Assembly: GCA_017506865.1 (NCBI GenBank)
Contig: JAFCMP010000023.1
Location: 124,001-188,000 of the forward strand
DNA: 64,000 nucleotides
Direction: 5' to 3'
Source: Tribonema minus
Lineage: Eukaryota; Sar; Xanthophyceae; Tribonematales; Tribonemataceae
Shown here in pieces: positions 8,725 through 21,517 of the stretch. The notes below the pieces were generated by a model. It did not search any database. It was not told where the DNA came from and worked only from the letters and a program-made list of their open reading frames with translations. How positions within the stretch are numbered: position 1 is the stretch's first letter; every line of letters starts with the position of its first letter. Both the position numbers and the translations under genes were made by a program.

Positions 8725-9042
8725 GAGTGGTTGCAGTCTCAATGCACAGATTTGACAAGGCGTGGTGCAACAGCAGCAGAGAGAGCTCAAAATTTTTGAG
8801 GCAGCTTGATGGTGTATTGGATGATTACTGATCTGTGTTTGAAATGCGGTAATCCAGCATGAGCCATGACGTTTTATGGTGCCAAGCTATCTGTTAAATT
8901 CTGATGAGTCAGCATGAGTTTGACACATGTACAGTTTGAGACGCCTGAGGTGAGCAGCGACTTATTGTGCTTCGCAACAATGCATGAAACTTCCCATTAT
9001 ATAGTGGCATGAGACGTAGTCCGTCTGTGACTGTGCCAAGTA
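8725..9042. other. Spacer before the retroelement ORF
   Basis: AT-richer than its surroundings, with no gene seen. It probably includes the 5' portion of the interrupted retroelement. Confidence 0.4.
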
Positions 9043-10458
9043 ATGGGTGATGGCATACGATATCGCAAGCAATCCATTATATCTACTAGCATAGAAGTAC
9101 TCAACTGCTCCAGGCCCGAGGACTGCTGCAGCGCCTGCAACAGGAGCAGCGGCAGGCGGCGCCGCAGTCGTGCCGGCTGCGACAGCGGTAACGGCGGTGC
9201 AGCGGCCAATGCGGCAGGTGCTGCACCAGCACCTGCGGCAGCAGCAGCACCAGCAGCAGCAACGGCAGGCGGCGCAGCTGCTCCAGCGCACGCAGCAGCA
9301 GCAGCCGTCAATGCAGGCGCTGCGCGTTCCACACCAGCAATGCTACAAGGCGCAGCAGCAGCAGAGGTGGCGCGCCTGCCCCTCTGCGGACGATCGCCAC
9401 AGCTGCCGCATCCCTACGTGCAGCAACAGGTGACAAGCTGGAACATGCCACCAGCGCTAATGCCACTGCAGCAGCAGCCACCTATGCAGCAGGCGCCGTC
9501 GCCAGCAGGTGGTGGCACTGGTGCGGATGCTGCTTACAGTGTACTTCATGGCAGTGCTCTGCAGTTGCAGTGTAGCCTGAGGCGCCTCAATCATAGTACG
9601 CTTGCAGATGCCGTCGCTACTGAGCTTGCAGATAAAGTGGAGGCGGACCTGCAACAGCTGCCGCAGGGCACACAACGCACGCAAGCACTTGCGCAAATCC
9701 GGTCGCAGCGCCACATGCACTCGATCAGCATGGCATTCCTCAACGAGCCGATGTACTCCACAGCGGCTTCGTTTGATGGCCTATCCTGGCAGCTGGCCGT
9801 CAAACGCGACGTCGGAGTAGAGGAGCAGACGGCAGGCTGCAAGCTGTGCGGGAAGTCGCCAGGGGACACTCTGCATGCACTGTGTCAAGCGCAACGCGTC
9901 AAGGCGCACGACACCATCGTCCATAACGGCGTCAAGAGGGCCCCGCAGCGCATCCTGCAGCAGTACCTCAAAACAGGACTGGTGGACGAGGACTACACGC
10001 CGTTTCTGGGGTCCGCCGGGCCGCCGGGAAGTCGCAGGATGGACATCGTGCTGCCTGCCGACACCTTCCCGGTGACCGACTACGACGATCCGACACGTCA
10101 ACTGCCGCTCACGCTTGACATCACCTGCTTCGAGGCACAGGTGGCGTCGCGGGCGGAGAAGACTGTAGACCCCGAACATTGCTGCCGCGACCAAGAGGCC
10201 ACCAAATACATCCACTATTCTGGTCATTATGATCAGAATTGCTACAAACTTGCCACTTTGGCAGCTGGGTCATTTGGCAGCATCGGGGCGCAGGGGCAGA
10301 AGCTGCTGGAGGCTGTGGCGACGGAGTATGCCAGCAGGATGTCAGTGCCCGGAGGAGCGCGCCCTAAAGCTCTCAAGGGCATCGCCCTGGCGTGCTTACG
10401 CTCGGCACTGTCGGCAGCGCTCCACATGGCGTACTCTGGCCGTGTCATGACACACATG
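9043..10458 (+). pseudogene. Non-LTR-retroelement-like C-terminal protein (Zn knuckle plus restriction-like endonuclease-like region), interrupted
   Basis: Open from an ATG at 9043, about 472 residues up to the point where an LTR begins. The N-terminal third is Ala/Gln low complexity. The rest resembles the region after the reverse transcriptase in non-LTR (LINE-type) polyproteins: a Cys/His cluster (CKLCG..........LHALC), then RMDIVLP, about 20 residues later LTLDITCF, and K near TKYIHY. This D...D...K order recalls a PD-(D/E)XK restriction-like endonuclease. No reverse transcriptase is present, so this is either a 5'-truncated element or a stand-alone derivative. The LTR element at 10459-21204 is inserted after codon 10456-10458; past the insertion the frame stops within about 15 codons (21209 onward). 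The frame printed across the junction (to 10596) is LTR sequence. Confidence 0.55.
10455..10458. repeat. Target-site duplication CATG, left copy
   Basis: CATG immediately before the 5' LTR is matched by CATG immediately after the 3' LTR (21205-21208). Confidence 0.75.
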
Positions 10459-10853
10459 TGTTACGGCTTTGGGTATGTGCACCTGGCTGAAAGGGTGACA
10501 TGCTATCAGAGAGTTCTAGGTACCAGGGCTTCCTATATGATGTCTCTAGGTGTTTGTATGCAACTTCACATTTGTAGTTCTAACCCTAGGCCCTAGCTGG
10601 CCAGAGATTGAGAGTGTTACACTTCTCTTCCTGGAACTCGCTGGAGCAAGACTGAGAGAAGCCCCCCACCCAAGCATTGGACTGTGCAGCTAGCTGTGAG
10701 GACCATCTACATTAACACAGGTGATCCCAAACTTGTCTCTGTGCTCTCTCTCTCTCTACCTCTCTCTGTTCACCAAAAGTCAGCTTCAACATAGCATCTC
10801 ACTCATCCCACATCACACATCTTCACATGTTACCACCAAGCTTTTTCGTATCA
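10459..10853 (+). repeat. 5' LTR (395 bp)
   Basis: Begins TGTTACGGCTTTGGG and ends CTTTTTCGTATCA. Aligns along its length with 20797-21204; the largest gap is in the CT-rich stretch near 10745-10780. It contains a CTCTCTCT tract, and a CCCTAGGCCC palindrome near 10584. Confidence 0.92.
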
Positions 10854-10855
10854 GA

Positions 10856-10873
10856 TGGCAACCGATCATACCT
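10856..10873 (+). promoter_or_regulatory. Candidate primer-binding site
   Basis: Starts with TGG two bases after the 5' LTR (TGGCAACCGATCATACC), the position and first bases expected for a site complementary to a tRNA 3' CCA end. The tRNA was not identified. Confidence 0.45.
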
Positions 10874-11727
10874 AGCCTCGTCACCCCTAACGCTGTCGTT
10901 GCGAGTGCTCGTTGGCTTGTTTTTTGCGAACTTCAACCTGGCATCTACCCGTCGCTTCGATGATACGTGTACCGCCTAACGAGTGCACTGGGCATGGAAT
11001 GCTGGGTATGCTGAGCTATAAATCCGACACCGTTACTGAGAAAAGCGGTGCCAGCGATCACCTAGGCGAAGCTTGTTAATGGGCACACTCAATCACGAGA
11101 GAAAAATCCGCTAAAGTGAGGCCTCACGTATCTAGAGCTTATGGTAGGAGTGGCTACCTAAGCAATGCTGGTGCGGCGGTCACCCAGGAGGGTGCGCACA
11201 GCCTTGAGAAAAGGGGGAGGGATGACACGGAGCCAGGAGCCAGAGAGCCAGTTGCAAGAGCACGAGTCTCAGCACGACTCGAGTCGTTGAGCTGTGCATC
11301 ACCGCGCGCTCGGAGGATGTAACTGTGGCCTATGTCCATGTGAGCCTCGACAGGCGCATGATAGGAGCCGGTTATACTCGCTCGCAGGCAGGCGCGACTG
11401 ACCCCCCCCCGCCAAAATGCAGGAGGCGCATGAGCTAGACAGCCCTGCATGATGCTAGAAAATCCACAGAATTGAGAGTGTGCGGCCTGAACAAGATGAA
11501 TACATGAATGGCGCAAGCAATGTGTGCTGCAACCAAACTGAGAATGCACCCCAAAGCCTGATTGATACTGGTCCAGCGCCTGAAGCCCAGCCCTACTCTA
11601 GTATTTCCCCACTCGCCAGACACAGGAGACGAGACGCACGAGCTGGAGGCACGAGCTAGAGGAGCAGAGACTACATCATGCCAGGCCCGGAATTCAGGCG
11701 CAACAACGGGCGTGTCTCTGACCCATT
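10874..11727 (+). other. Retrotransposon 5' leader
   Basis: About 850 bp between the primer-binding site and the first Gag-like frame. Only short frames (for example from 11562) with no recognisable similarity. Confidence 0.4.
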
Positions 11728-12868
11728 TTGGAGGCGCCGCAAGAGTACGGCCACCGCAGCAAGGGCGTGGCGAACACAGCGGGCCTGAGCTCGGCCAACT
11801 CGCGGGTGCTACAAGCCTTCTTGCGCGGCATGCCGGCGCAGGTCACCAACCAGTTGCGGCAGGCGGGGGGACGACAGCAAGGTACCCAGCCACAAGGCGA
11901 CGCTCGACGGGGCCATCAACGCTGCGTCAAAGAGCTACACTGCCTTGCTGGCACAGACGCGCGCCGACTGCCAGCTCATGCTAGCACAGAGCCACACGCC
12001 GCAGGAGCAGCAGCTTGAGCTCCTCAACAGCGACGAGTACCTGGAGCGGAGTGCCAACAAGATCCACAACAGGACGGTGGGCATCGAGCCCAGCGACACC
12101 GACGTCCGCCCACACTCTCGCAAGCCACAGGTGCGCGGCATGGCGGCTAAGGCCACCAGCAACAATGGCGGCGGCGCCGGCACTCACGGCGGCAACAGCG
12201 CTGGCAACGCCTATAAGGCCTTCATCTGCTTCAAGTACAAGAGGCTGGTGGACGCAGGTGCAAGCTTCACGGCTCACCGGACCACTCAGAGCTGCAAGGA
12301 GTGGAACGCGTACGACAGCCAACGCGTGGCCAGCGGTCAGAAGCGTCGTGTGTTGGACATGCAGGACGAGGCGCGCAGCCTGCAGACTAGATTGGAGCAG
12401 CTGCAGTTTGATGCAGCAGCGCTCAGGAGGGAGTGCGCGGAGAGCTCCGTCATTCAGCGCGCCCTGCAAGGGCTGCCTCCCAGGCGCAGCCGCGACACGG
12501 ACTATGGCGCACAGACATCATGGCGCGAGCATGCTTAGGGGCGCAACGGCGGCAGGTCCCGCTCCCCAAAGCGGCAGTACGCTGGCGAACGCGGGCGCAA
12601 GGGTCACACGCCTGCTGATGACACGCGGCGCCGCAGCGACGGCGACAGGCACACTGTCAGGAGCCGGTCACGCAGCGGCGGGCGCGGTGGCGACAGGCGC
12701 GATGGCGGCAGGCGTGATGGCGACAGGCGCAGGAGTCACTCGCGCGGCGACAGGAGCAGGTCGCGTGGCGCTAGGCGCGCAGCAGCGGCGAGCGCGAAGG
12801 ACGTTTTCGCGAGCATCTCCATGGATGACTTGATCTTGGAGTGCGAGTGGCGCAAGAAAGGGAACTGA
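11728..12868 (+). pseudogene. Gag-like protein of the LTR element (frameshift plus in-frame TAG)
   Basis: The first part (ANTAGLSSANSRVLQAFLRG onward) is in one frame. At a G run (about 11863-11870) the frame shifts by one, and coding continues through AINAASKSYTALLAQTRADC and a helical region to a cysteine/histidine cluster (C-F-K-Y ... AHRTTQSC) that looks like a CCHC knuckle whose second Cys is Tyr. An in-frame TAG at 12536-12538 interrupts a frame that continues with a strongly basic Arg/Ser/Asp/Gly tail (RSRSRSGGRGGDRR...) and ends at TGA 12866-12868. The basic RS/RG tail fits nucleic-acid binding. The Gag call rests on position, the knuckle and the tail. The TAG could be a read-through site, but other stops in the element favour decay. 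Confidence 0.6.
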
Positions 12869-12940
12869 GACGCCCGCACCAGTACACACGCGCCAGACGA
12901 CCAACGGGCGCGTCAGGACGCTCAGGTGGAGACACAGCTG

Positions 12941-13760
12941 GCGGTGGACATTGACCCGTTGTGGTCGCGGCGTACAAGACAGCGTTTGGCGGTACAAGAA
13001 CTATTGATTCTAGCGTCGGCGACCAGGCAGTAGCGGAGGCGGTGGCGCTAGCGAAGCCTGATGTCGTCACGTATAGCCCGCCGTGCACAGACTACTCGAG
13101 TCACGACGGCGCCATCCGCGAAGGCGCCGCAGCGGAGTGTACCAGTATGGCAGCCAGTAGCCTGATAGCCGGAAGGGTCAAGTTTGCACTTCTTGAGAAT
13201 GTGCGGCAGATGCTGCGTTCCAAGACTTGGCAAGCGGCGAAGCAGCTTCTAGTCAGCAGGGGGTACGCGGTGTACACAGCGTTGCTGCCAGGCAAGCTGT
13301 TGGGATGCCCCTGCAGGCGCACCAGAGTTTACTGCGCCACAGTTAAAGCTCAACCGGGGGCACGTGAGGCACTTCAGCGTTTTGGAGCTTTCATCAATGC
13401 ACTTGTACGGCGCACTACACAGACCTCGATGGGTGCGGCGGTGCCGGAGCTTGGATCCCTGCTGTTTCTCAAACCACGCATGAAAGGCAAGAAAGGCGTT
13501 TACAGCACTGCTGGCTTGCTTCCTAGCCCTGTTAGGCGTTATCCTGGCGTACCTGGGCAATACTATGTGCGCCGTGCTCAGGATGATGGTGCAGTTGAAC
13601 ATGCAACAGCCCACGCATGATCAGTTAGCAAGGCTCATGACCTACAACAAGCCATTGCCAGCTTTGCCCAAGGACAGGCTCAGCCTCATGATAGCAAACC
13701 TGGTCATGCCCAGGGCAGCAGCTTTAATTTTGCGCGCAGCTGACGCAGCAGGAATCATGG
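12941..13760 (+). pseudogene. C5-cytosine-specific DNA methyltransferase domain captured in the LTR element
   Basis: Motif order of the Dcm/DNMT family is visible. Motif II-like AVDIDP is at 12941-12958, in the Gag frame. After a one-base shift, VVAAYKTAF leads to motif IV PDVVTYSPPCTDYSSHDG (PPC catalytic loop, about 13057-13110), motif VI ALLENV (about 13183-13203) and motif VIII GCPCRRTRVYCATV (about 13304-13345; the usual Q-x-R-x-R has Cys in place of Gln). A second shift near 13560-13620 returns to the first frame, where DRLSLMIANLVMPRAAALIL (about 13672-13733) fits motif X. The enzyme family methylates cytosine at carbon 5 using AdoMet. The AdoMet-binding motif I (FxGxGG) is not visible upstream, so the N-terminus is either degenerate or lost. 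The domain runs without a stop into the linker and protease frame, indicating that it was part of the polyprotein. Confidence 0.8.
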
Positions 13761-15150
13761 ATTTGCCAGAACCTAGTTGGGATGCACCAGCAGAGCAGGG
13801 CTTTGAGCTGGTGCATGACTTGAATGCGCCGCCACCAGAGTGGATGACTGCTGCGCAGAATGTGCTAGTGCATGTTCCCGAAGATGAGGAGGATGTTGCC
13901 AGAGCACAACGCGCTGTGGCAGAGCTTGATGACGGCAGCGCTCAGCTGAGCAGCAGTGACTTGCAGCACAGTGCTCAGCGTAACAACAGTGCAGCTAGTG
14001 TGTCAAGCAGCAGCGCTCAACCTACTTGCAGCACGGTTGGTGCACCAGTGAGCGTTGTGAGCAGCAGCGCTCAACGTACTGGTAGCACAGAAGGCGCACA
14101 AGGTAACAGCGCTCAGCGCATGCACCCAGCAAGCTACAAGGGCGATGTGCTAAACTTCTCAGACACAGAGGAGGAGAGTGATGATGAGGAAGCACGACTC
14201 ATTGATGCCAGTTGGCCAGATACTAGTGATGTACAGACGGTTCGCGCGGCTGCAATGCGCAGCGCAGCTGCCGGCATGAGCGATGAGGACGCCAGAATGG
14301 AGCCAGAGTGGGAGGGCAATGGTGGCGCCAGAGACATCAGAGAGACCAGTGGCCAGAATACCAGAGAGGGGTGCCAGACAACACCTGCAAGACGCCAGGT
14401 GGCCAGAGAAAGGTGCCAGACGACACCTGCAAGATGCCAGATGGCAAATGACCAGAGCGCGCGCACTGATGCCGCGCATGACACCAGCAAGGTGTTCAAG
14501 TTCGGCGCGAGCGCCGACGCCGGAGACACAGATTCTAATGGCTGGCAGAGCCGAGGTTTTGTGCACACCACGTGGCGCCTGTGCGGCGACCAGCGCAAGA
14601 GCAGCGAGCGCGCTGTCATGGAGCGAGGCTTGAAGATGTTGGTGGACACCGGCGCTGACATCACGCTGCTGTCTTGCAAGCAAGCTGAAATCTTGCCAGC
14701 TGGAGCTAGATGCCGTCTGGAGAGGCGTGATCCCACTGTCATAGAGCTCGCTGACACGCGCAAGTCCATCCCCATTCTTGGCGCGGTGACCCTATGGTTA
14801 CAGTTCGGGGGCAAGCAGTGCCAGCAATAGGTGCTTCATTGTGGAGCTGCCAGGCATGCATGGCATCCTAGGCACTGACTTCTTTGTGAAGTTTGGTTCG
14901 GTCATATCATATGAGACTGGCAAGCCAACTTTTGCGCCGCTTGGAGCCAGTGGACCGGTTGCACCTATGGTGACTGCTGGAGATGCAGCTGCGGCACTTG
15001 GTGAGATTAAGCGCCATGGGTCATTGAGTACCCCTACTGAGGCAGCAGTTTCACCACCTCAGCATAGGGCTGCAAGGCTCACAGAGGACGTTGTCATAGC
15101 GTCCTTTGAAGAACAGATTTTAGAGATGAGCACCCAAAACTGGAGGGAGT
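13761..15150 (+). pseudogene. Ser/Gln-rich linker and retropepsin-like aspartic protease of the LTR element
   Basis: In frame after methyltransferase motif X comes an acidic segment (VHVPEDEEDVARAQ), then repeated SSSAQ-type units (about 13940-14120), an acidic serine patch (FSDTEEESDDEEARLID) and a Gln/Arg-rich stretch. The protease follows: MLVDTGADITLLS with the catalytic DTGA at 14645-14656, and, after a frameshift near 14825-14835, GILGTDFF (about 14863-14886), the second retropepsin landmark. Retropepsins cleave the polyprotein and act as dimers. A further shift near 15130 leads to the frame used by the reverse transcriptase. Confidence 0.8.
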
Positions 15151-17363
15151 GTCGGAGTATGACGGTGTGTTTGTGCCAGGCACCATTCAGGTCATTGAGG
15201 ATCTGACACAGCGCGGCGCGCGTGTGGCGCTAGCGGCAGTGCGCGTAGCATCGGCGAATGTAGTGCACGCCAAAGTGGTCAATACTTCAACAATGTTACT
15301 TTTGATACGGCGCAATACCCACATCGGCAGCGTACGTCCAGCGCAGGATGGAGAAATAGTTGATTTGAAGGATGCCAGTGTTGGGCTACTTCAAGATTGG
15401 CTGATGCGTGCAGCAGAAGCGGAGCCAGACCCGCGCGCGCAACTGGCAGCAGTAGCCACTGCATATCGCATGCAGTCTGACGCCGTAATGGCGGATGGGT
15501 TGCAAAAGGGGCTCGCCAAGCACTTTGAACCACAACGCTCAGCGATGGCATCTACCAGCGGAGCATCACCAGAAACAGAGAGCCACGGAGCGTCACCAGC
15601 GGCATGCGCTGCCAATGGAGCGTCACCAGACACAGGCGCGACCAATGGAGCATCGCCAGACACAGACAAAACGACCAACAGAGCGTAACCAGACACAGGC
15701 ACGACCAGTGGAGCGTCACTAGAGGCTAGTGCCACCAATGGAGCGTCACCGGTGCCTCCAGGCGAGCAAGGCGCGCAAGTGCAGCAGGATGACCTGTGCA
15801 CTGACGAGGAACTGCGCGAGATGCTCATGGTGGACGGCGAAGTCAATCCCATGCTGCGGGAAAAGGCGCTAGACGGCGAGTTGCTAGTTGACAAGGTACT
15901 TCGGGTGCTGCGTGCGCATCGCTCAGTGTTTGCAAAGGACCCGAACAACCCACGCCGGACGCACCTGACGGAGATTGACATAGATACCGGCGACGCGGCA
16001 CCAATGGCGGACAAGGCCAGGCATTGGGCTCAGAAGGAGGCTGAGTACATCATGCAATGGGTTAAGGCGATGCTAGAACGGGGCCATGTTGAAGTTTCAA
16101 CTAGCCCTTGGGCCTGTAACCCAGTACTTGTGCAGCAGAACGACAAGATTCGGTTTTGCGTTGACTTTCGCAAACTCAACTCAGTGACCAAGTGCAACAG
16201 TCATGGTATTGGCAACATAGACGACATGCTGCAAAAGCTGCGCGGAGCATCGGTCATGTCAACGCTCGACTTGGCGGCCGGGTACTACCAGACCCCACTC
16301 TCAGAGGACACCAAGCCCAAGACCGCGTTTCGACTGCCCAACGGTGCGTTGTACCAGTACACGGTGGCGCCTTTTGGCATGATCAACCTGCCGGCGCAGT
16401 TCACACGGCTCATGCACCAGGTGCTAGGCGGAGTACACGCGATGGTGTACATCGACGATGTGCTAATTTACAGCAATTCACTCGAGGCGCACATCAAGCA
16501 GCTTGACGATGTGCTGGGGAGGATTGATGCCGCCGGCATGAGCGTTGCCAGACACAAGTGCCAGCTGTTCCGCGAGGAGGTCAAGTTTCTCGGGCACATA
16601 GTTGGCGCGGGCGGAGCTAGACCAGATCCTGACAAGGTGAAGGCAATGCTAGGCATGGCACCTCCACTAGACAGCAGGGGCAAGCCAGACAAGAGATTGG
16701 TGCAGACCGTTGTGGGCTGCTTCAATTACTACAGGCGCTACTTCAAAAACTTCAGTAAACTGGCGGCGCTCATCGTCGAGCTCACCAAAGACAAGAACTC
16801 GCACCTGCTGTGGGATGCCACGCGACAACGCGCGTACCAGCGGCTGAAGGAGGCGATGTGCAGCGCCACACTGGTCATGCACCCAGACTTCTCGTTGCCG
16901 TTTGTGCTGTACACGGGTGCTTCCAAAACAGCATGCGCGGGTGTACTCACGCAGTTCAGGCCACTGACGGAGCTAGAAGCGCAAGCGCAACCTTGCACGA
17001 CGACGGGACGTCGCCGCCTTGAAAAGGGGGAGGAGGTCAGAAAGGTAGTTGTTGGCTACTTCAGCAAGCTCAACAGCGAGCAAGACGCTAACATGGGGGC
17101 AACAGCGCTCGAATGCTTAGCGGTGGTGGCTCCACCACTTCCGGCCATACATCTGGGGGTGCCCAGTCACGGTGGTCACGGATGCAGCAGCGCTCAGGTG
17201 GTTACTTACACTACAGGACCACAATGGCAAGTTGCTGCGTTGGGCGATGCGAGTCATGGAGTATGACGTCACCGTGCAGCACAGATCTGGCAAGCACAAT
17301 GGCAACGCAGACGGTCTTTCACGGCTGCCAACACAAGCGGAGCTTGACGCGCCAAAGGAGTAG
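15151..17363 (+). pseudogene. Reverse transcriptase and RNase H of the LTR element
   Basis: The frame opens with EYDGVFVPGTIQVIEDL and a Ser/Pro repeat region, passes an in-frame TAA (15686-15688), and continues into a Ty3/gypsy reverse transcriptase: VFAKDP, KIRFCVDFRKLN, STLDLAAGYYQ, APFGMINLPAQF, catalytic YIDD (16448-16459), HKCQLF and VKFLGHIV. The tether leads to RNase H (LLWDATRQRAYQRLKEAM, FVLYTGASKTACAGVL, in which the usual TDAS is TGAS, so the first catalytic Asp is lost). A frameshift near 17130 precedes HFRPYIWGCPVTVVTDAAAL and HRSGKHNGNADGLSRLP, and TAG follows at 17361-17363. The loss of the RNase H Asp and the stops make it inactive. Confidence 0.92.
15560..15755 (+). repeat. 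30-bp minisatellite inside the polyprotein
   Basis: About six to seven degenerate units of the form GGAGCGTCACCAGACACAGG plus ten more bases, each encoding NGASPDTGAT-like decapeptides between protease and reverse transcriptase. The TAA at 15686-15688 arises where TCA of the unit reads TAA. Confidence 0.75.
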
Positions 17364-17368
17364 GACCC

Positions 17369-17512
17369 CGAGATGCCATTTGGCGGCGGCGGCGTTTGAG
17401 TGGTTGTCGTTGCGACGCTTTCAGACTGTCATACGACATGTAGATTCCTTACAGCTAGATGCCAATCATCTGGGCTTTTTCGCGCCCTGAGCGAGAATTA
17501 ATAAAAAGTACT
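17369..17512 (+). mobile_element. Retroposon 3' tail inserted between RNase H and integrase
   Basis: About 145 bp similar to 21358-21517 in the 3' flank of the LTR element. It starts CGAGATGCCATTTGGCGGCG, contains CTTTTTCGCGC and ends AATTAATAAAAAGTAC. It directly follows the RNase H stop and precedes integrase-linked coding. It could be a 5'-truncated copy of the host retroposon or a tail shared by recombination. Confidence 0.6.
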
Positions 17513-17541
17513 GGCATGCTGACGAGGGTTGGTCAGATGCA

Positions 17542-19521
17542 GTGCCATGCTTCAACGCGCCGCCATCTGGGGTCAAATTCGCTGATGATCAGCATGTGAC
17601 TGCGGACAGCGCGTGCAGCGGCGCTCAGCAAGGTCAGACTGTGCGCAGCAGCGCTCAACAAGGCGTGGTGAGAGTGGCTACGTTGCACGGCTATGCTGTA
17701 GCGGCGCCACACGGGTTTCCGTACCGCTTCAACGATGCGGCTGTTATGGCAGCAGCGAGCGAGAGCGGAGGAGGGGCCGGACGCTTATTCAGCATGAGCA
17801 TTGCGCAGGCCAAGGAGCTTTTAGAGGAAGATGACGTGCCGGCCCCAGACTGCGAGGGCAACGTCACGTTGTTTGCGTCGCCAGAGTCATTTACATGGCA
17901 TGCTGATGCTTAGGTACAGCTGGCGCAAGATGGAGGCGCACTGACGCGCGATGAGGCACAGCATGTCAGCGGAGGTCTAGCGCAGCTACGCACCGCCAAG
18001 GCGAAGCGCAGGCGCACTAGTGCGGTGAGCACTGATGCAGCGAGCGCTGACACAGCGATGACGGCGGTCGGGAAGCGTAGGCTTGCCCATGTGGTGAGCG
18101 CTGACGCGATAGGTGGCACAGGATCGAAACGGAGGCGCAAGAGCTCATTGAGCACTGACTTGACAGCTGGCGCAGCAGACCCAGGTGAGCACGTGTCAGA
18201 ACCAGAGGCATGCGCAACGACACTTGATGGTCAGGCGGAAGAACAGTCAGGTGACAGGCGTAATAGCAGGCGCAAGATGACAGCTCCTAGGCCGGACACG
18301 GACGCAGCGGGCGTCGTGGAGGCTGCGGCAGGCGGTGATGCCTCACCTACGCCAGCGATGCTCAGCAGGGAAGTGTTCTTGGAGATGCAGAGGCGCGATG
18401 CTTTCTGCCAGGCGGTCACGAGGGCATTGGATCAGAGTGAGCTGCCCCGTGACAAGGAGTTGGCTATGCACTTGATGATGTGCAGGGAGTTGTACACCAC
18501 TGAGGAGGACGGCCTGCTTCTACATTGCGCAGTTAGCAAGCCTAAGCGTGGCAAGATGCTGCTACAGTGGGTGACACCATCAGTGCTCAGGCCATTGGTG
18601 CTCAGACTTGGCCATGACAACGCAAGCGCGGCGCACGGCGGTGTGGGCGCAACGTTGATCAGGATTGCTGAGCAATTCTACTGGCCAGGCATGAGCGCTG
18701 ATGTCAGGCAGTACGTCATCAGCTGCGTAGCGTGCCAGAAGCGCAAGTCTTCCACTTCAAGTCAGTACGTGCAGTTGGTGATCGAGCCCACACACGTCTA
18801 CCAACGCGTACACGTGGACTTCTTTCAAGCATCCGCCAAGTCGTCGGCCGGCCACGTGTACATACTCGTTGTAGTAGATGCGCGCAGCAGGTATGTATGG
18901 CTGTACGCCACAAAGGACAAGGAGGCAACCACAGTGGCGGACATACTGTACAGGCTGTTCCTAGACATTGGCAGCATGCCAGAGCAGCTGATTTCAGACC
19001 AAGGCAAGGAGCTTGCGGCAGCAGTCATTGCTGACTTGTGCCGGCTCTTCATGGTCAACAAGGTGGAGACATCTGCGTACCATTCACAAGCCAATGGGGT
19101 AGCAGAGCGCATGAACCGGCGTGTTCTTGCAGCACTACAGCTCTGGATGTCAGATCAACAGGTCGACTGGCACAAGGGCCTGGAGGCTGTGCAATACGCG
19201 CTTAGAACATCACCGCGCACAGAGACGGGCTTAACGCCGTACTATTGTGTGCATGGCCGGGAGGCAGCCATTCCGCTAGAGGCGTTCGGCAATGTGGAGC
19301 ACAGAGGCGATCTGCTCAGCGAGATACAGGAGCGCCTGACTCACATGGAGGTGGCACAGCGCGTCATAGACGAGGCGTATGGCATCAGGCGCGAGCGCAT
19401 GGAGTAGCGCAATCGCGATGTGCGGCGCACGGTCAGCTACTCGGTGGGAGATTTGGTCATGATCGAGCAGCAACCGGTACCAGGCAGGGGTCGCAAGCTA
19501 GATCCCAAGTACTCGGGGCCA
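17542..19521 (+). pseudogene. Integrase of the LTR element (in-frame TAG at 17911 and 19405)
   Basis: A Ser/Gln-rich leader (17542-18330, with a nuclear-localisation-like KAKRRR and repeated serine/threonine units) contains an in-frame TAG at 17911-17913. The integrase follows: zinc-binding H-x-H-x-C-x2-C region (LGHDNASAAHGG ... CVACQKRK, about 18610-18750) and the DDE core with D in YQRVHVDFF (about 18799), D in LISDQGKEL (about 18988) and E in HSQANGVAERMN (about 19080). TAG at 19405-19407 and TGA at 19522-19524 interrupt the C-terminal extension, where KLDPKYSGP would normally continue into a Trp or Phe (GPF/GPW module). The enzyme inserts the cDNA into host DNA. Confidence 0.9.
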
Positions 19522-19850
19522 TGACAGCTGATGCAGGCCACCAAGTCAGGGCTTTCATTCTCGGCGCGCATGATGGGCAGGAGAGTGAGACACACCATGG
19601 TCCACGTTTCCAACATGAAGCCCTTTCACCGGCGTCCAGATCACCTGACGTCCAAGGGCACAGTGCACGCAAGGCTCACAGGCGAGCAGTTAGCGGACCT
19701 TGATGTGGATGAGCAGGTGTACACCATTCACGACAGACGGGCCAATCCAAATGGCACCTGGGATTACAGGTGGCTCAGGCGTGACGGTCAACGGAGCGAA
19801 TGGGTCGGCGAGGACGCAATGCTTGAGATTGTGACGCCTTGGACGCTGGA
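19522..19850 (+). pseudogene. Integrase tail with chromodomain-like segment
   Basis: Same frame as the integrase, after the TGA at 19522. MVHVSNMKPFHRRP matches the end of a gypsy integrase core extension. About 40 residues later EQVYTIHDRRANPNGTWDYRWLRRDGQRSEWVGEDAM has the order of a chromodomain (I..R...G...Y.V.W......W.....L), though the aromatic cage is only partly recognisable. In chromoviruses such domains direct integration to methylated-histone chromatin. Medium confidence in the domain. Confidence 0.6.
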
Positions 19851-20543
19851 CACTTTCATGCTCTGTATGAGCTGCGCCCAGAGAATGAGCAGTTTGCATA
19901 CGCTCAACGACCGGAAGCTAAGCCATCCGCTCAGTTGGAGCGCGATGCAGCGCTGGCAGTTTTCCCACGCGGTACAGAGGTAGTGCGAGAGCACAAGCCG
20001 CGCGACGCACCGCTCACGTACATCTGGGGGCGCATAGACGGCTACCTCAAGCCATATTGGCGGGCGCGCTATGACGATGGTGTGTGGGAGGACATGACCA
20101 AGACCGATGTCAAACAGGCGGTAGCGCTGGCGCAAGCAGTCAAGCACCGGGCGGAGCGCAGTGGCATTACGGCGAGCCAACCGGTGTTGACGCTAGTCAC
20201 CAATCCCATCATACCATCTGATTTTGGCGCCAACTACGAGGGCGAGGTGGTGCGCTATCACTCGGAGTCAACTGGCTGGTTGCGCGGCAAGCTGGTCAGA
20301 TACATGCCGCGGCGCAGCAAGTTCACCTTTGAGGTGTTGTTCAACGGAGAGTCACAGCCACGTACGGTTGTGTTGAGGCCTGGCTACACAGCGGGCGAGG
20401 GCGAGTCTCAGCCAAAGCTGGCCAGACACTCAGCATGGAACATACTCATCAACAAGCCAGTAGACAGCGAGCTGGCGGCGGCCGCGACTGATGCAGAGCC
20501 GATAGCGGTGGATGACTCCAATAGCGAAGTAGCGCGAGGTTAG
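19851..20543 (+). pseudogene. C-terminal module with two Tudor/Agenet-like segments
   Basis: After a frameshift near 19850 an open frame runs to TAG at 20541-20543. It contains FPRGTEVVREHKPRDAPLTYIWGRIDGYLKPYWRARYDDGVWEDMT (about 19959-20096), typical of Tudor or Agenet folds (G..V......W...Y.DG..E.), and a second similar unit, ANYEGEVVRYHSESTGWLRGKLVRYMP...FEVLFNGE (about 20230-20352). Such folds read methylated histone tails. The tail is acidic (AVDDSNSEVARG). The fold assignment is inference from pattern only. Agenet-like tails are unusual in gypsy elements. Confidence 0.5.
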
Positions 20544-20783
20544 GGTCGTGTGGGCCATTACCAACGGCTCAACGGCCGTCACATCAGCAAGCTAGTAGGC
20601 TCAGTGGCAATGCTGCGTGGACTGGGCGGGGTCCCGCAGTAGGTCCGACACAGCCGTCCTGCGCAGCACAGCCTTCTGCATAGGAAGCATAGCGGTGTGT
20701 TGGGTGGGCCTGGAACGTTGACCTGATTCGTACATCTCTCTCATGCTAGAACATGGGACAGCTCCGAGGACGGAGTTGTGTCT
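20544..20783 (+). other. Retrotransposon 3' untranslated region
   Basis: No coding potential seen between the last element frame and the purine tract. Confidence 0.5.
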
Positions 20784-20794
20784 AGGAAGGGGGA
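20784..20794 (+). promoter_or_regulatory. Polypurine tract
   Basis: AGGAAGGGGGA two bases before the 3' LTR, the position where plus-strand DNA synthesis is primed. Confidence 0.75.
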
Positions 20795-20796
20795 TT

Positions 20797-21204
20797 TGTT
20801 ACGGCTTTGGGTATGTGCACCTGGCTGAAAGGGTGACATGCCATCAGAGAGTTCTAGGTACCAGGGCTTCCTATATGATGTCTCTAGGTGTTTGTATGCA
20901 ACTTCACATTTGTAGTTCTAACCCTAGGCCCTAGCTGGCCAGAAATTGAGAGTGTTACACTTCTCTTCCTGGAACTCGCTGGAGCAAGACTGAGGGAAGC
21001 CCCCCACCCAAGCATTGGACTGTGCAGCTAGCTGTGAGGACCATCTACATTGACACAGGTGATCCCTAACTTGTCTCTGTGCTCTCTCTCTCTGTCTACC
21101 TCTCTCTGTTTCTCAACTGCTCACCAAAAGTCAGCTTCAACATAGCATCTCACTCATCCCACATCACACATCTTCACATATTACTACCTAGCTTTTTCGT
21201 ATCA
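20797..21204 (+). repeat. 3' LTR (408 bp)
   Basis: Begins TGTTACGGCTTTGGG and ends CTTTTTCGTATCA. Matches 10459-10853 with scattered substitutions and a 13 bp length difference. Confidence 0.92.
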
Positions 21205-21208
21205 CATG
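21205..21208. repeat. Target-site duplication CATG, right copy
   Basis: Matches 10455-10458. Confidence 0.75.
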
Positions 21209-21517
21209 GCCGGGTCCGGGGGGGGGGGGGTGCACATGGAGGAGTGTTAGAATATGAGCACTTCCGACTTCACCTTGTGTGTGGGTTTCAGACCAGACTC
21301 TCATTGTGTGCCCTGCAGTCAAACCTCAAGTATCAAGGAGGACGTAGGAGAGGATATCGAGATGCCATTTGGCGGCGGCGGCGTTTGAGTGGCTGTCATT
21401 GAGACACTTTCAGACTGTCACACGACATGTAGATTCCGTACAGCAAGCTTCAAGTACTGACATATGCCATTCATTTGGACTTTTTCGCGCTCTCAGCAAG
21501 AATTAATAAAAGCACTC
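21209..21517 (+). mobile_element. 3' remainder of the interrupted retroelement, with conserved tail
   Basis: The continuation of the element cut at 10458. It includes a G12 run (about 21218-21230) and from 21358 the tail also found at 17369-17512. It ends CTTTTTCGCGC...AAGAATTAATAAAA. AATAAA serves as a probable polyadenylation signal. Confidence 0.6.

What the first reader, a model, noticed from the sequence alone, without database searches (positions are those of the whole stretch)
10459..21204. Ty3/gypsy-like retrotransposon that captured a cytosine DNA methyltransferase
A complete element (LTRs, target duplication, purine tract, PR-RT-RH-IN) carries a C5-methyltransferase domain between Gag and protease, in the polyprotein frame. 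Capture of such enzymes by LTR elements has been reported only in a few lineages (I recall a dinoflagellate and a charophyte). An element that methylates its own DNA could avoid being silenced or mutated, or could imitate silent chromatin to persist.
Basis: partly seen in the sequence, partly recalled or inferred. Interest (0 to 1): 0.92.

Follow-up and report, generated by a model that had tools for sequence, protein, structure and literature searches.

The report
Retrotransposon carrying a DNA methyltransferase
A mobile genetic element in what is probably an alga carries its own DNA-methylating enzyme; the copy in this window is broken, but the same genome holds many relatives whose reading frames are still open, so the enzyme looks like a lasting part of the element's machinery.

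Summary
10459-21204 is a Ty3/gypsy-type LTR element (LTRs, 4-bp duplication CATG, RT, RNase H, integrase) with a C5-methyltransferase (DNMT) domain between Gag side and protease (PF00145, E 4.6e-12). This copy is decayed: motif I is deleted, the domain is out of frame and split. Sister copies hold the domain in the element's own frame. A union of three searches gives 255 DNMT places in the genome, 98 in open frames of 2000 aa or more. Two architectures exist: A (this element), Gag-DNMT-PR-RT-RH-IN, and B, Gag-TAG-PR-DNMT-RT-RH-IN, with about 30% RT identity to A. Between diverged copies the DNMT is under purifying selection (dN/dS 0.07-0.24); in the window's subfamily it is relaxed (0.41-0.93). 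Window-family copies differ 2-4 times more often by C/T at CG than at CHG or CHH, which fits CG methylation but lacks a DNMT-free control. The enzyme is not Dnmt3-like, unlike the known charophyte case. The host 18S looks stramenopile (by recall), not green algal. New variant of a known kind.

The parts
10455..10458 (.). target-site duplication, left (CATG)
   Evidence: sequence; the sister copy on C204 has its own 4-bp duplication ATAC
10459..10853 (+). 5' LTR (TG...CA)
   Evidence: direct repeat
10856..10873 (+). primer-binding-site-like sequence TGGCAACCG... (tRNA not identified)
   Evidence: sequence reading
11789..12868 (+). Gag-side ORFs (249 and 109 aa, same frame, one stop between)
   Evidence: no Pfam match in the first; the second was not scanned; called Gag side by position only
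12860..12861 (+). site where four sister copies carry about 675-960 bp more
12924..12925 (+). site of a deletion of about 72 bp that removed DNMT motif I (FAGIGG in sisters)
12955..13620 (+). cytosine-5 methyltransferase remnant: PF00145 at 12970-13353, with PPC, ENV and RRTR motifs
   Evidence: E 4.6e-12; 96-97% identical DNA in three sister copies, 90% in a fourth
13600..13730 (+). DNMT C-terminal motif (IANLVMP), in another frame than 12955-13620
14627..14695 (+). protease motif (MLVDTGADITLLS), weak PF13975
   Evidence: E 0.026, below cut-off
16142..16603 (+). reverse transcriptase (RVT_1)
   Evidence: E 1.7e-28
16811..17128 (+). RNase H
   Evidence: E 2.7e-15 and 9.1e-6
17363..17507 (+). 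about 145-bp insertion with an A-rich end, absent from sister copies, flanked by AGTA; a second copy lies at 21351-21496
18577..18753 (+). integrase zinc-binding domain (H2C2)
   Evidence: E 2.9e-19
18790..19050 (+). integrase core (rve)
   Evidence: E 6.9e-12
20785..20794 (+). polypurine tract (GGAAGGGGGA)
   Evidence: sequence
20797..21204 (+). 3' LTR
21205..21208 (.). target-site duplication, right (CATG)

Best explanation
This is a decayed member of a large family of Ty3/gypsy LTR retrotransposons, with recent copies elsewhere in the genome, that took up a cytosine-5 DNA methyltransferase and kept it as a working polyprotein domain. Shown: the domain is in the element's own frame in sister copies, follows the RT through diverged lineages, and is under purifying selection between lineages. 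Shown as a trace: copies differ by C/T more often at CG than elsewhere, as expected if the elements are CG-methylated. Inferred: the domain is made as part of Gag-Pol (A) or of Pol after stop-codon read-through (B), is packed into the particle, and methylates CG in the element's own new cDNA or newly integrated copy. The likeliest benefit is that a pre-methylated copy is protected, or enters host chromatin in a quiet state that the host tolerates, at the price of faster decay of old copies. Capture and retention I put near 0.95; self-methylation of DNA as the purpose near 0.5.
For: PF00145 in the window. Open polyproteins with DNMT, RT, RNase H and integrase parts in 7 of 7 scanned (L030-L036). 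255 distinct DNMT places in the union (all 123, all 131 and 75 of 121 rows typed in), 98 of 255 in open frames of >= 2000 aa; four of the 255 are not retroelement-like and most of the rest were not opened one by one. For B, a DNMT match lies upstream of the RT on the same strand in 36 of 40 (RT >= 95% identity), 20 of 24 (70-94%), 12 of 17 (51-69%) (92 of 102 RT rows and 97 of 121 DNMT rows used); for A in 72 of 92 (92 of 93 RT rows). DNMT dN/dS: 0.07 (L033-L035 and L033-L038, dS 0.41-0.42), 0.20 (L029-L030), 0.21 (L031-L032, L032-L037, L034-L035), 0.24 (L033-L034); RT for L033-L035 0.07, L033-L034 0.15. Cys of motif IV, ENV and the R.R motif are invariant in the 4 rows of A1 and the 7 rows of A3. 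C/T differences at CG, CHG, CHH: 7.7, 2.0, 3.0% (window-C119); CG is highest in 8 of 8 window-family pairs, by 1.9 to 4.0 times. CG is also highest in the 6 other pairs, though in L031-L037 (0.98 against 0.95% CHG) and L034-L036 (6, 4 and 3 changes) hardly so.
Against: No methylation data, transcript or enzyme assay exists here. The CG excess has no control from DNMT-free sequence of this genome, so general CG hypermutability or methylation by a host enzyme is not excluded; the window's own LTR pair shows 0 of 6 CG, 0 of 31 CHG and 6 of 136 CHH changes. CG depletion is weak: A elements 0.79-0.90, B 0.92-1.03, host stretches 0.91-1.10; B overlaps the host. In the window's own subfamily constraint looks relaxed (dN/dS 0.93, 0.54, 0.41), and for the pair L019-L025 the RT is at 0.16 while the DNMT is at 0.54: there the DNMT seems less needed than the RT. 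L031-L037 gives 1.94 for DNMT on too few changes and 0.94 for RT. In 20 of 92 A and 13 of 81 B rows (RT >= 51%) no DNMT was seen upstream, in part because only the best candidates are scored. L032 has SSC in place of the usual PPC or APC motif, so some lineages may be altered in activity. The best solved relative of both profiles is Dnmt2, a tRNA methyltransferase.
Confidence: 0.8

Rival explanations
1. The DNMT is retained but acts on RNA (for example the tRNA primer, genomic RNA or RNA-DNA hybrid), as Dnmt2 acts on tRNA, and the CG footprint comes from host methylation.
For: For both DNMT profiles the best solved match is Dnmt2; PMC5890265 reports that Dnmt2 gives no DNA methylation in yeast (part read).
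Against: The host's own Dnmt2 (L041) does not group with A or B in the tree (long branch, 44% of columns filled). Bacterial DNA methyltransferases and Dnmt1 also match. C/T excess at CG fits a DNA mark.
Confidence: 0.15
2. The domain is silent baggage: captured once and amplified with the elements, without a use.
For: In the window subfamily dN/dS is 0.41-0.93, and for one pair the DNMT (0.54) is less constrained than the RT (0.16); the window copy has lost motif I.
Against: dN/dS 0.07-0.24 in the diverged pairs and invariant catalytic residues; the domain follows the RT over lineages down to 51% RT identity in most rows.
Confidence: 0.06
3. The CG excess and weak CG depletion reflect host silencing of these elements by a host DNMT, and the element's DNMT serves another role, such as competing with or diverting host methylation.
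For: No DNMT-free control was available; B elements are not CG-depleted.
Against: Among the PF00145 hits that I opened, the only ones outside retroelements were Dnmt2 and three intronless stand-alone genes; this is no proof of absence, since introns break matches, 49 PF00145-only places were mostly not opened, and the DNMT1-RFD search rang in no control.
Confidence: 0.3
4. Separate nested insertion or assembly join rather than an element's own domain.
For: Nested insertions do occur in this family: the insert at 17363-17507, and a foreign stretch in frame in L029 after aa 1165.
Against: Same place of the DNMT within open polyproteins in copies on different contigs, in two fixed architectures, and matches in many more open frames.
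Confidence: 0.01

Closest known systems
KnitGypsy-Dnmt3 (Klebsormidium nitens; de Mendoza et al. 2018, PMC5890265)
   Same: Ty3/gypsy Pol polyprotein with an intronless cytosine DNMT under purifying selection.
   Different: There the enzyme is Dnmt3 and the repeats are arranged as in DIRS elements; here the window element has ordinary TG...CA LTRs with a 4-bp duplication, the enzyme is not Dnmt3-like, there are two architectures (A before the protease, B after it), and the host is probably of another eukaryotic supergroup.
SymbioDIRS-Dnmt3 and SymbioLINE-Dnmt (Symbiodinium; PMC5890265)
   Same: Hundreds of intronless DNMTs carried by retrotransposons in one alga; CG depletion reported for the LINE type.
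   Different: DIRS and LINE elements, not LTR/gypsy; enzyme lineages there are Dnmt3 and an orphan group.
Transposon-borne N4C/N6A methyltransferases (DIRS, PMC5890265; Sola1 of Ectocarpus, PMC12477816, passage)
   Same: A mobile element that encodes a DNA-modifying enzyme.
   Different: Different chemistry; not cytosine-5.
Chromoviruses (Ty3/gypsy with an integrase chromodomain; recalled)
   Same: A gypsy element that carries a chromatin-linked accessory domain.
   Different: A reader domain at the integrase, not an enzyme between Gag and protease.

Membership tests
Ty3/gypsy LTR retrotransposon | LTRs with TG...CA ends and a short target duplication | tested here: met
   second copy (C204) with ATAC duplication. 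A B copy on C340 has LTR-like repeats (99.1% over 212 bp) but its direct flanks do not match.
Ty3/gypsy LTR retrotransposon | RT-RNase H-integrase order in Pol | tested here: met
   (H2C2 over cut-off; rve over cut-off in the window, below it in 6 of the 7 polyproteins L030-L036 and not found in L031)
Ty3/gypsy LTR retrotransposon | aspartic protease before RT | tested here: inconclusive
   weak matches, all below cut-off: window 0.026, L030 2.4e-4, L033 0.0019, L035 0.0014, L021 0.0036; none in L031, L032, L034, L036
Ty3/gypsy LTR retrotransposon | RT falls in the Ty3/gypsy clade on a tree with named references | not tested
   no named reference RTs were at hand
C5 cytosine methyltransferase (PF00145) | profile match over the curated cut-off | tested here: met
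   window 46.5 bits against 22; L019, L021, L025, L029-L036, L042
C5 cytosine methyltransferase (PF00145) | motifs I, IV (Cys), VI (ENV), VIII (R.R) and a C-terminal half (motif names recalled) | tested here: met
   met in sister copies and B (hhalign of A3 and A1 aligns 289 columns); not met in the window copy, which lacks motif I. In L032 the residue before the Cys is Ser.
KnitGypsy-Dnmt3 | DNMT of the Dnmt3 family | tested here: not met
   no chain named Dnmt3 among 39 and 44 PDB matches at E <= 1
KnitGypsy-Dnmt3 | direct sequence kinship to K. nitens copies | not testable with these tools
   no K. nitens sequence found among the collections used
Dnmt2 | grouping with Dnmt2 on a tree | tested here: inconclusive
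   host Dnmt2 lies outside A and B, but on a branch of 2.93 with 44% of columns filled
CG-specific self-methylation | methyl transfer to CG in the element's DNA | not testable with these tools
   only a mutational trace without a DNMT-free control

The most novel reading that the evidence does not exclude
The host's CG methylation is written largely by its retrotransposons. A retroelement-specific DNMT lineage, distinct from Dnmt1, 2, 3 and 5, was acquired once by an old Ty3/gypsy ancestor, moved from one side of the protease to the other (A and B), has since co-evolved with the RT, and now supplies most of the DNMT genes of the genome, so that parasites and host share one methylome.
Probability: 0.12. 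Interest if true: 0.93.

Novelty: new variant of a known kind. Interest (0 to 1): 0.75.

Why it matters
DNMTs in retrotransposons are a paradox: the element carries the tool used to silence it. In the papers that I saw, cytosine DNMTs in retrotransposons are described in detail for two host groups (dinoflagellates and a charophyte; PMC5890265). A probable third group, with a non-Dnmt3 enzyme, two polyprotein designs, rows of copies with identical RTs and open frames of about 3000 aa, would show that the capture recurs with unrelated enzymes, and gives many natural copies for testing what the mark does.

Tried and rejected
Nested insertion of the DNMT: rejected by sister copies. Green-algal host: my first guess from base composition, dropped after the 18S piece and telomere searches (none for TTTTAGGG, or TTTAGGG; 3071 forward and 3991 reverse TTAGGG matches, among them an array at the start of C2). 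Viral source: scans of viral contigs gave 2 weak relatives of A out of 27 stretches and none of B out of 42. The polyprotein search for relatives of B found none among 4434 candidates; the B domain alone found 59 and the A profile 8, the best being single metagenome proteins, the others at 24-37% and mostly unnamed. DNMT1-RFD search is uninformative: no control rang. Naming the host from its contig number found nothing useful. Whether the RT clade at <= 38% identity to B (0 of 11 with a DNMT match upstream) truly lacks a DNMT stays open: its sequence could not be fetched, and a divergent DNMT would be missed. No structure prediction was run: the rule of that tool admits the window's own truncated piece but does not name loci of the whole genome.
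Full report
What is in the window. The element runs from 10459 to 21204. Its LTRs (10459-10853, 20797-21204) share 94.8% over 407 columns, with 8 mismatches and the rest gaps; it is flanked by CATG on both sides. RT, RNase H and integrase pass Pfam cut-offs; the protease is a weak match below cut-off with a VDTGAD motif; PF00145 matches at E 4.6e-12 between the Gag side and the protease.

This copy is decayed. Against the sister copies on C119, C204, C549 and C4 it lacks about 72 bp that hold DNMT motif I and about 675-960 bp just upstream, and against the three of them that span the place it carries about 145 bp extra near the RNase H region. That extra piece has an A-rich end, an AGTA duplication and a second copy just outside the element at 21351-21496, so it looks like a small nested SINE-like insert. 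The reading frame changes several times. So 'in the polyprotein frame' is true of the family, not of this copy.

The family. In the window's genome (158.18 Mb, 554 contigs), PF00145 gives 123 scored places of 378 candidates, the sister DNMT 131 of 379 and the B DNMT 121 rows from 397 candidates. Merged (all rows, 75 of 121) they give 255 distinct places, 98 of them in frames of at least 2000 aa. Four are not retroelement-like: an exon of host Dnmt2 (C523) and three intronless stand-alone genes (C223 twice, C181). Of the remaining 251 I opened only those named here; only the best candidates are scored, so the true number can be higher, and small contigs may duplicate some.

Two architectures. 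A: Gag side-DNMT-PR-RT-RH-IN in one ORF (L030-L032; a protease match only in L030, with rve below cut-off in L030 and L032 and none in L031), with further subfamilies beside the window's. B: PR-DNMT-RT-RH-IN (L033-L036; protease matches, weak, only in L033 and L035), preceded in the same frame by another ORF and a single TAG in L033, L034 and L035. The stop sits in the same context, CACCTAGGGGTGCGACCCC, in 3 of 3 copies looked at, with a possible small hairpin directly after it (by eye); read-through is an inference. In the first ORF of L034 a zinc-knuckle pattern occurs; none was found by the same pattern in the other ORFs tested. RT identity between A and B is 28-34%, within A 52-94%, within B 82-100%. 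L029 has the DNMT but no RT in the 2431 aa scanned; it matches L030 at 98.6% over 1146 aa and then runs into a foreign stretch. L027, from the 71% relative on C423, gave no Pfam match in its two longest ORFs.

Kinship of the enzymes. On a tree of 43 rows A is one clade (100/100), B is one clade (97/91), and A with B has 91/94, which is suggestive only; the program warns of meeting long branches. The tree used 24 of the 67 database proteins and 19 rows of this genome; I left out the window fragment and, of 27 database proteins first chosen, P0004, P0060 and P0067. The profile comparison of A and B runs over the whole domain (probability 98.7, E 2.1e-16, 22% identity). One capture followed by a change of place, or two captures from similar donors, are both open. 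The tree holds no named Dnmt1, 3 or 5 sequences, so the donor is not known. Solved structures nearest to both are Dnmt2, then bacterial enzymes and Dnmt1, and no chain named Dnmt3 appears at E <= 1 (single sequences, where the best match for B was a bacterial enzyme). Related pieces occur in unnamed metagenomes: P0001, 68% to B, and P0060-P0064 to A; P0062 continues beyond the DNMT with a stretch resembling the L030 polyprotein (by eye).

Selection. Of 16 DNMT pairs, the diverged or moderately diverged ones give 0.07 (L033-L035, L033-L038), 0.21 (L031-L032, L032-L037, L034-L035), 0.24 (L033-L034) and 0.16 at saturated dS (L048-L021); L029-L030 gives 0.20. L035-L038 (0.33) and L031-L037 (1.94) rest on very few changes; three pairs gave no ratio (L034-L036 without synonymous change, L030-L050 and L030-L031 saturated). 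The window subfamily gives 0.93, 0.54 and 0.41. RT (11 pairs): 0.07, 0.08, 0.13, 0.15, 0.04 in diverged pairs, 0.16 for L019-L025, 0.94 for L031-L037 (189 codons), 0.00 for L034-L036, and three without a ratio. So the DNMT is about as constrained as RT between close B lineages, less so across wider ones, and clearly less than RT in the window subfamily.

Footprint. C/T differences (neighbouring bases unchanged) are highest at CG in all 8 window-family pairs run, for example 7.7% against 2.0% (CHG) and 3.0% (CHH) for window-C119, and 13.1% against 3.9% and 3.6% for C119-C549; two B pairs at moderate distance give 13.1-13.7% against 7.0-7.8%. These pairs share copies and are not independent. CG is also highest in the other 4 pairs, hardly so in two of them. 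The window's LTR pair has 0 of 6 CG changes. There is no DNMT-free control. CG observed/expected is 0.79-0.90 in A loci, 0.92-1.03 in B loci and 0.91-1.10 in host stretches of the window.

Host. A piece with 18S, 5.8S and the start of the 28S gene lies on contig C300. Judged from memory, with no database, its signatures are those of stramenopiles, perhaps a photosynthetic one, and not of green algae. A TTAGGG array at the start of C2 agrees with that and not with the green-algal repeats tested. C300 could be a contaminant, and the piece seems to carry single-base gaps, so this is tentative.

Literature. Of PMC5890265 I read parts 1-3 of 7 and found passages; of PMC12344493, PMC9998398, PMC11244446, PMC10538959, PMC6338049, PMC12477816, PMC3145265 and PMC8079154 I saw found passages only. 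PMC5890265 reports DNMT-bearing LINE and DIRS elements in Symbiodinium and a gypsy element with Dnmt3 in Klebsormidium, and de novo CG methylation by the DIRS enzymes in yeast. PMC6338049 says, citing others, that DAM- and DCM-encoding gypsy and DIRS elements occur in stramenopiles, red and green algae and charophytes, without detail in the passage that I saw; so some relatives may have been noticed before. Nine searches aimed at this subject listed no paper whose title or shown text describes this family; I opened only those named. Most of them were framed on green algae; only on stramenopiles. Subscription papers and preprints are not held.

Most likely working. The DNMT is translated with Gag-Pol, cut out or left within the particle, and methylates CG sites of the element's own DNA after reverse transcription. 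Domain presence and constraint are shown; packaging, substrate and benefit are inferred.

Noticed in passing
17363-17507 and 21351-21496: Two copies (90% over 97 bp) of a short A-rich-ended repeat; one is nested in the element with an AGTA duplication, the other lies just outside its 3' end. SINE-like.
   Followed up: partly
9031-10458: The element lies in or beside a long ORF with a C..C...H...C-like stretch (KLCGKSPGDTLHALCQAQ), which by eye resembles the end of a non-LTR retrotransposon; no Pfam match.
   Followed up: partly
L001, L002, L003 (C223 and C181 of the genome): Intronless stand-alone cytosine methyltransferases in frames of 367-390 aa; L001 and L002 group apart from the retroelement enzymes on the tree. 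They may mark endogenous large DNA virus sequence (a guess by eye).
   Followed up: partly
L034:1718-1720, L033:2478-2480, L035:2323-2325: Single in-frame TAG between the first ORF and the Pol ORF of B elements in an identical context with a possible hairpin directly after it: candidate programmed read-through.
   Followed up: partly
Whole genome: 3071 forward and 3991 reverse exact matches to four TTAGGG units, with many of those listed on C1 scattered along the contig: interstitial telomere-like repeats.
   Followed up: no
L029 (C218:10001-20000), after aa 1165 of the minus-strand ORF: An A element interrupted by a foreign stretch that keeps the reading frame open for more than 1200 aa and, by eye, holds a non-LTR-like RT motif.
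   Followed up: partly
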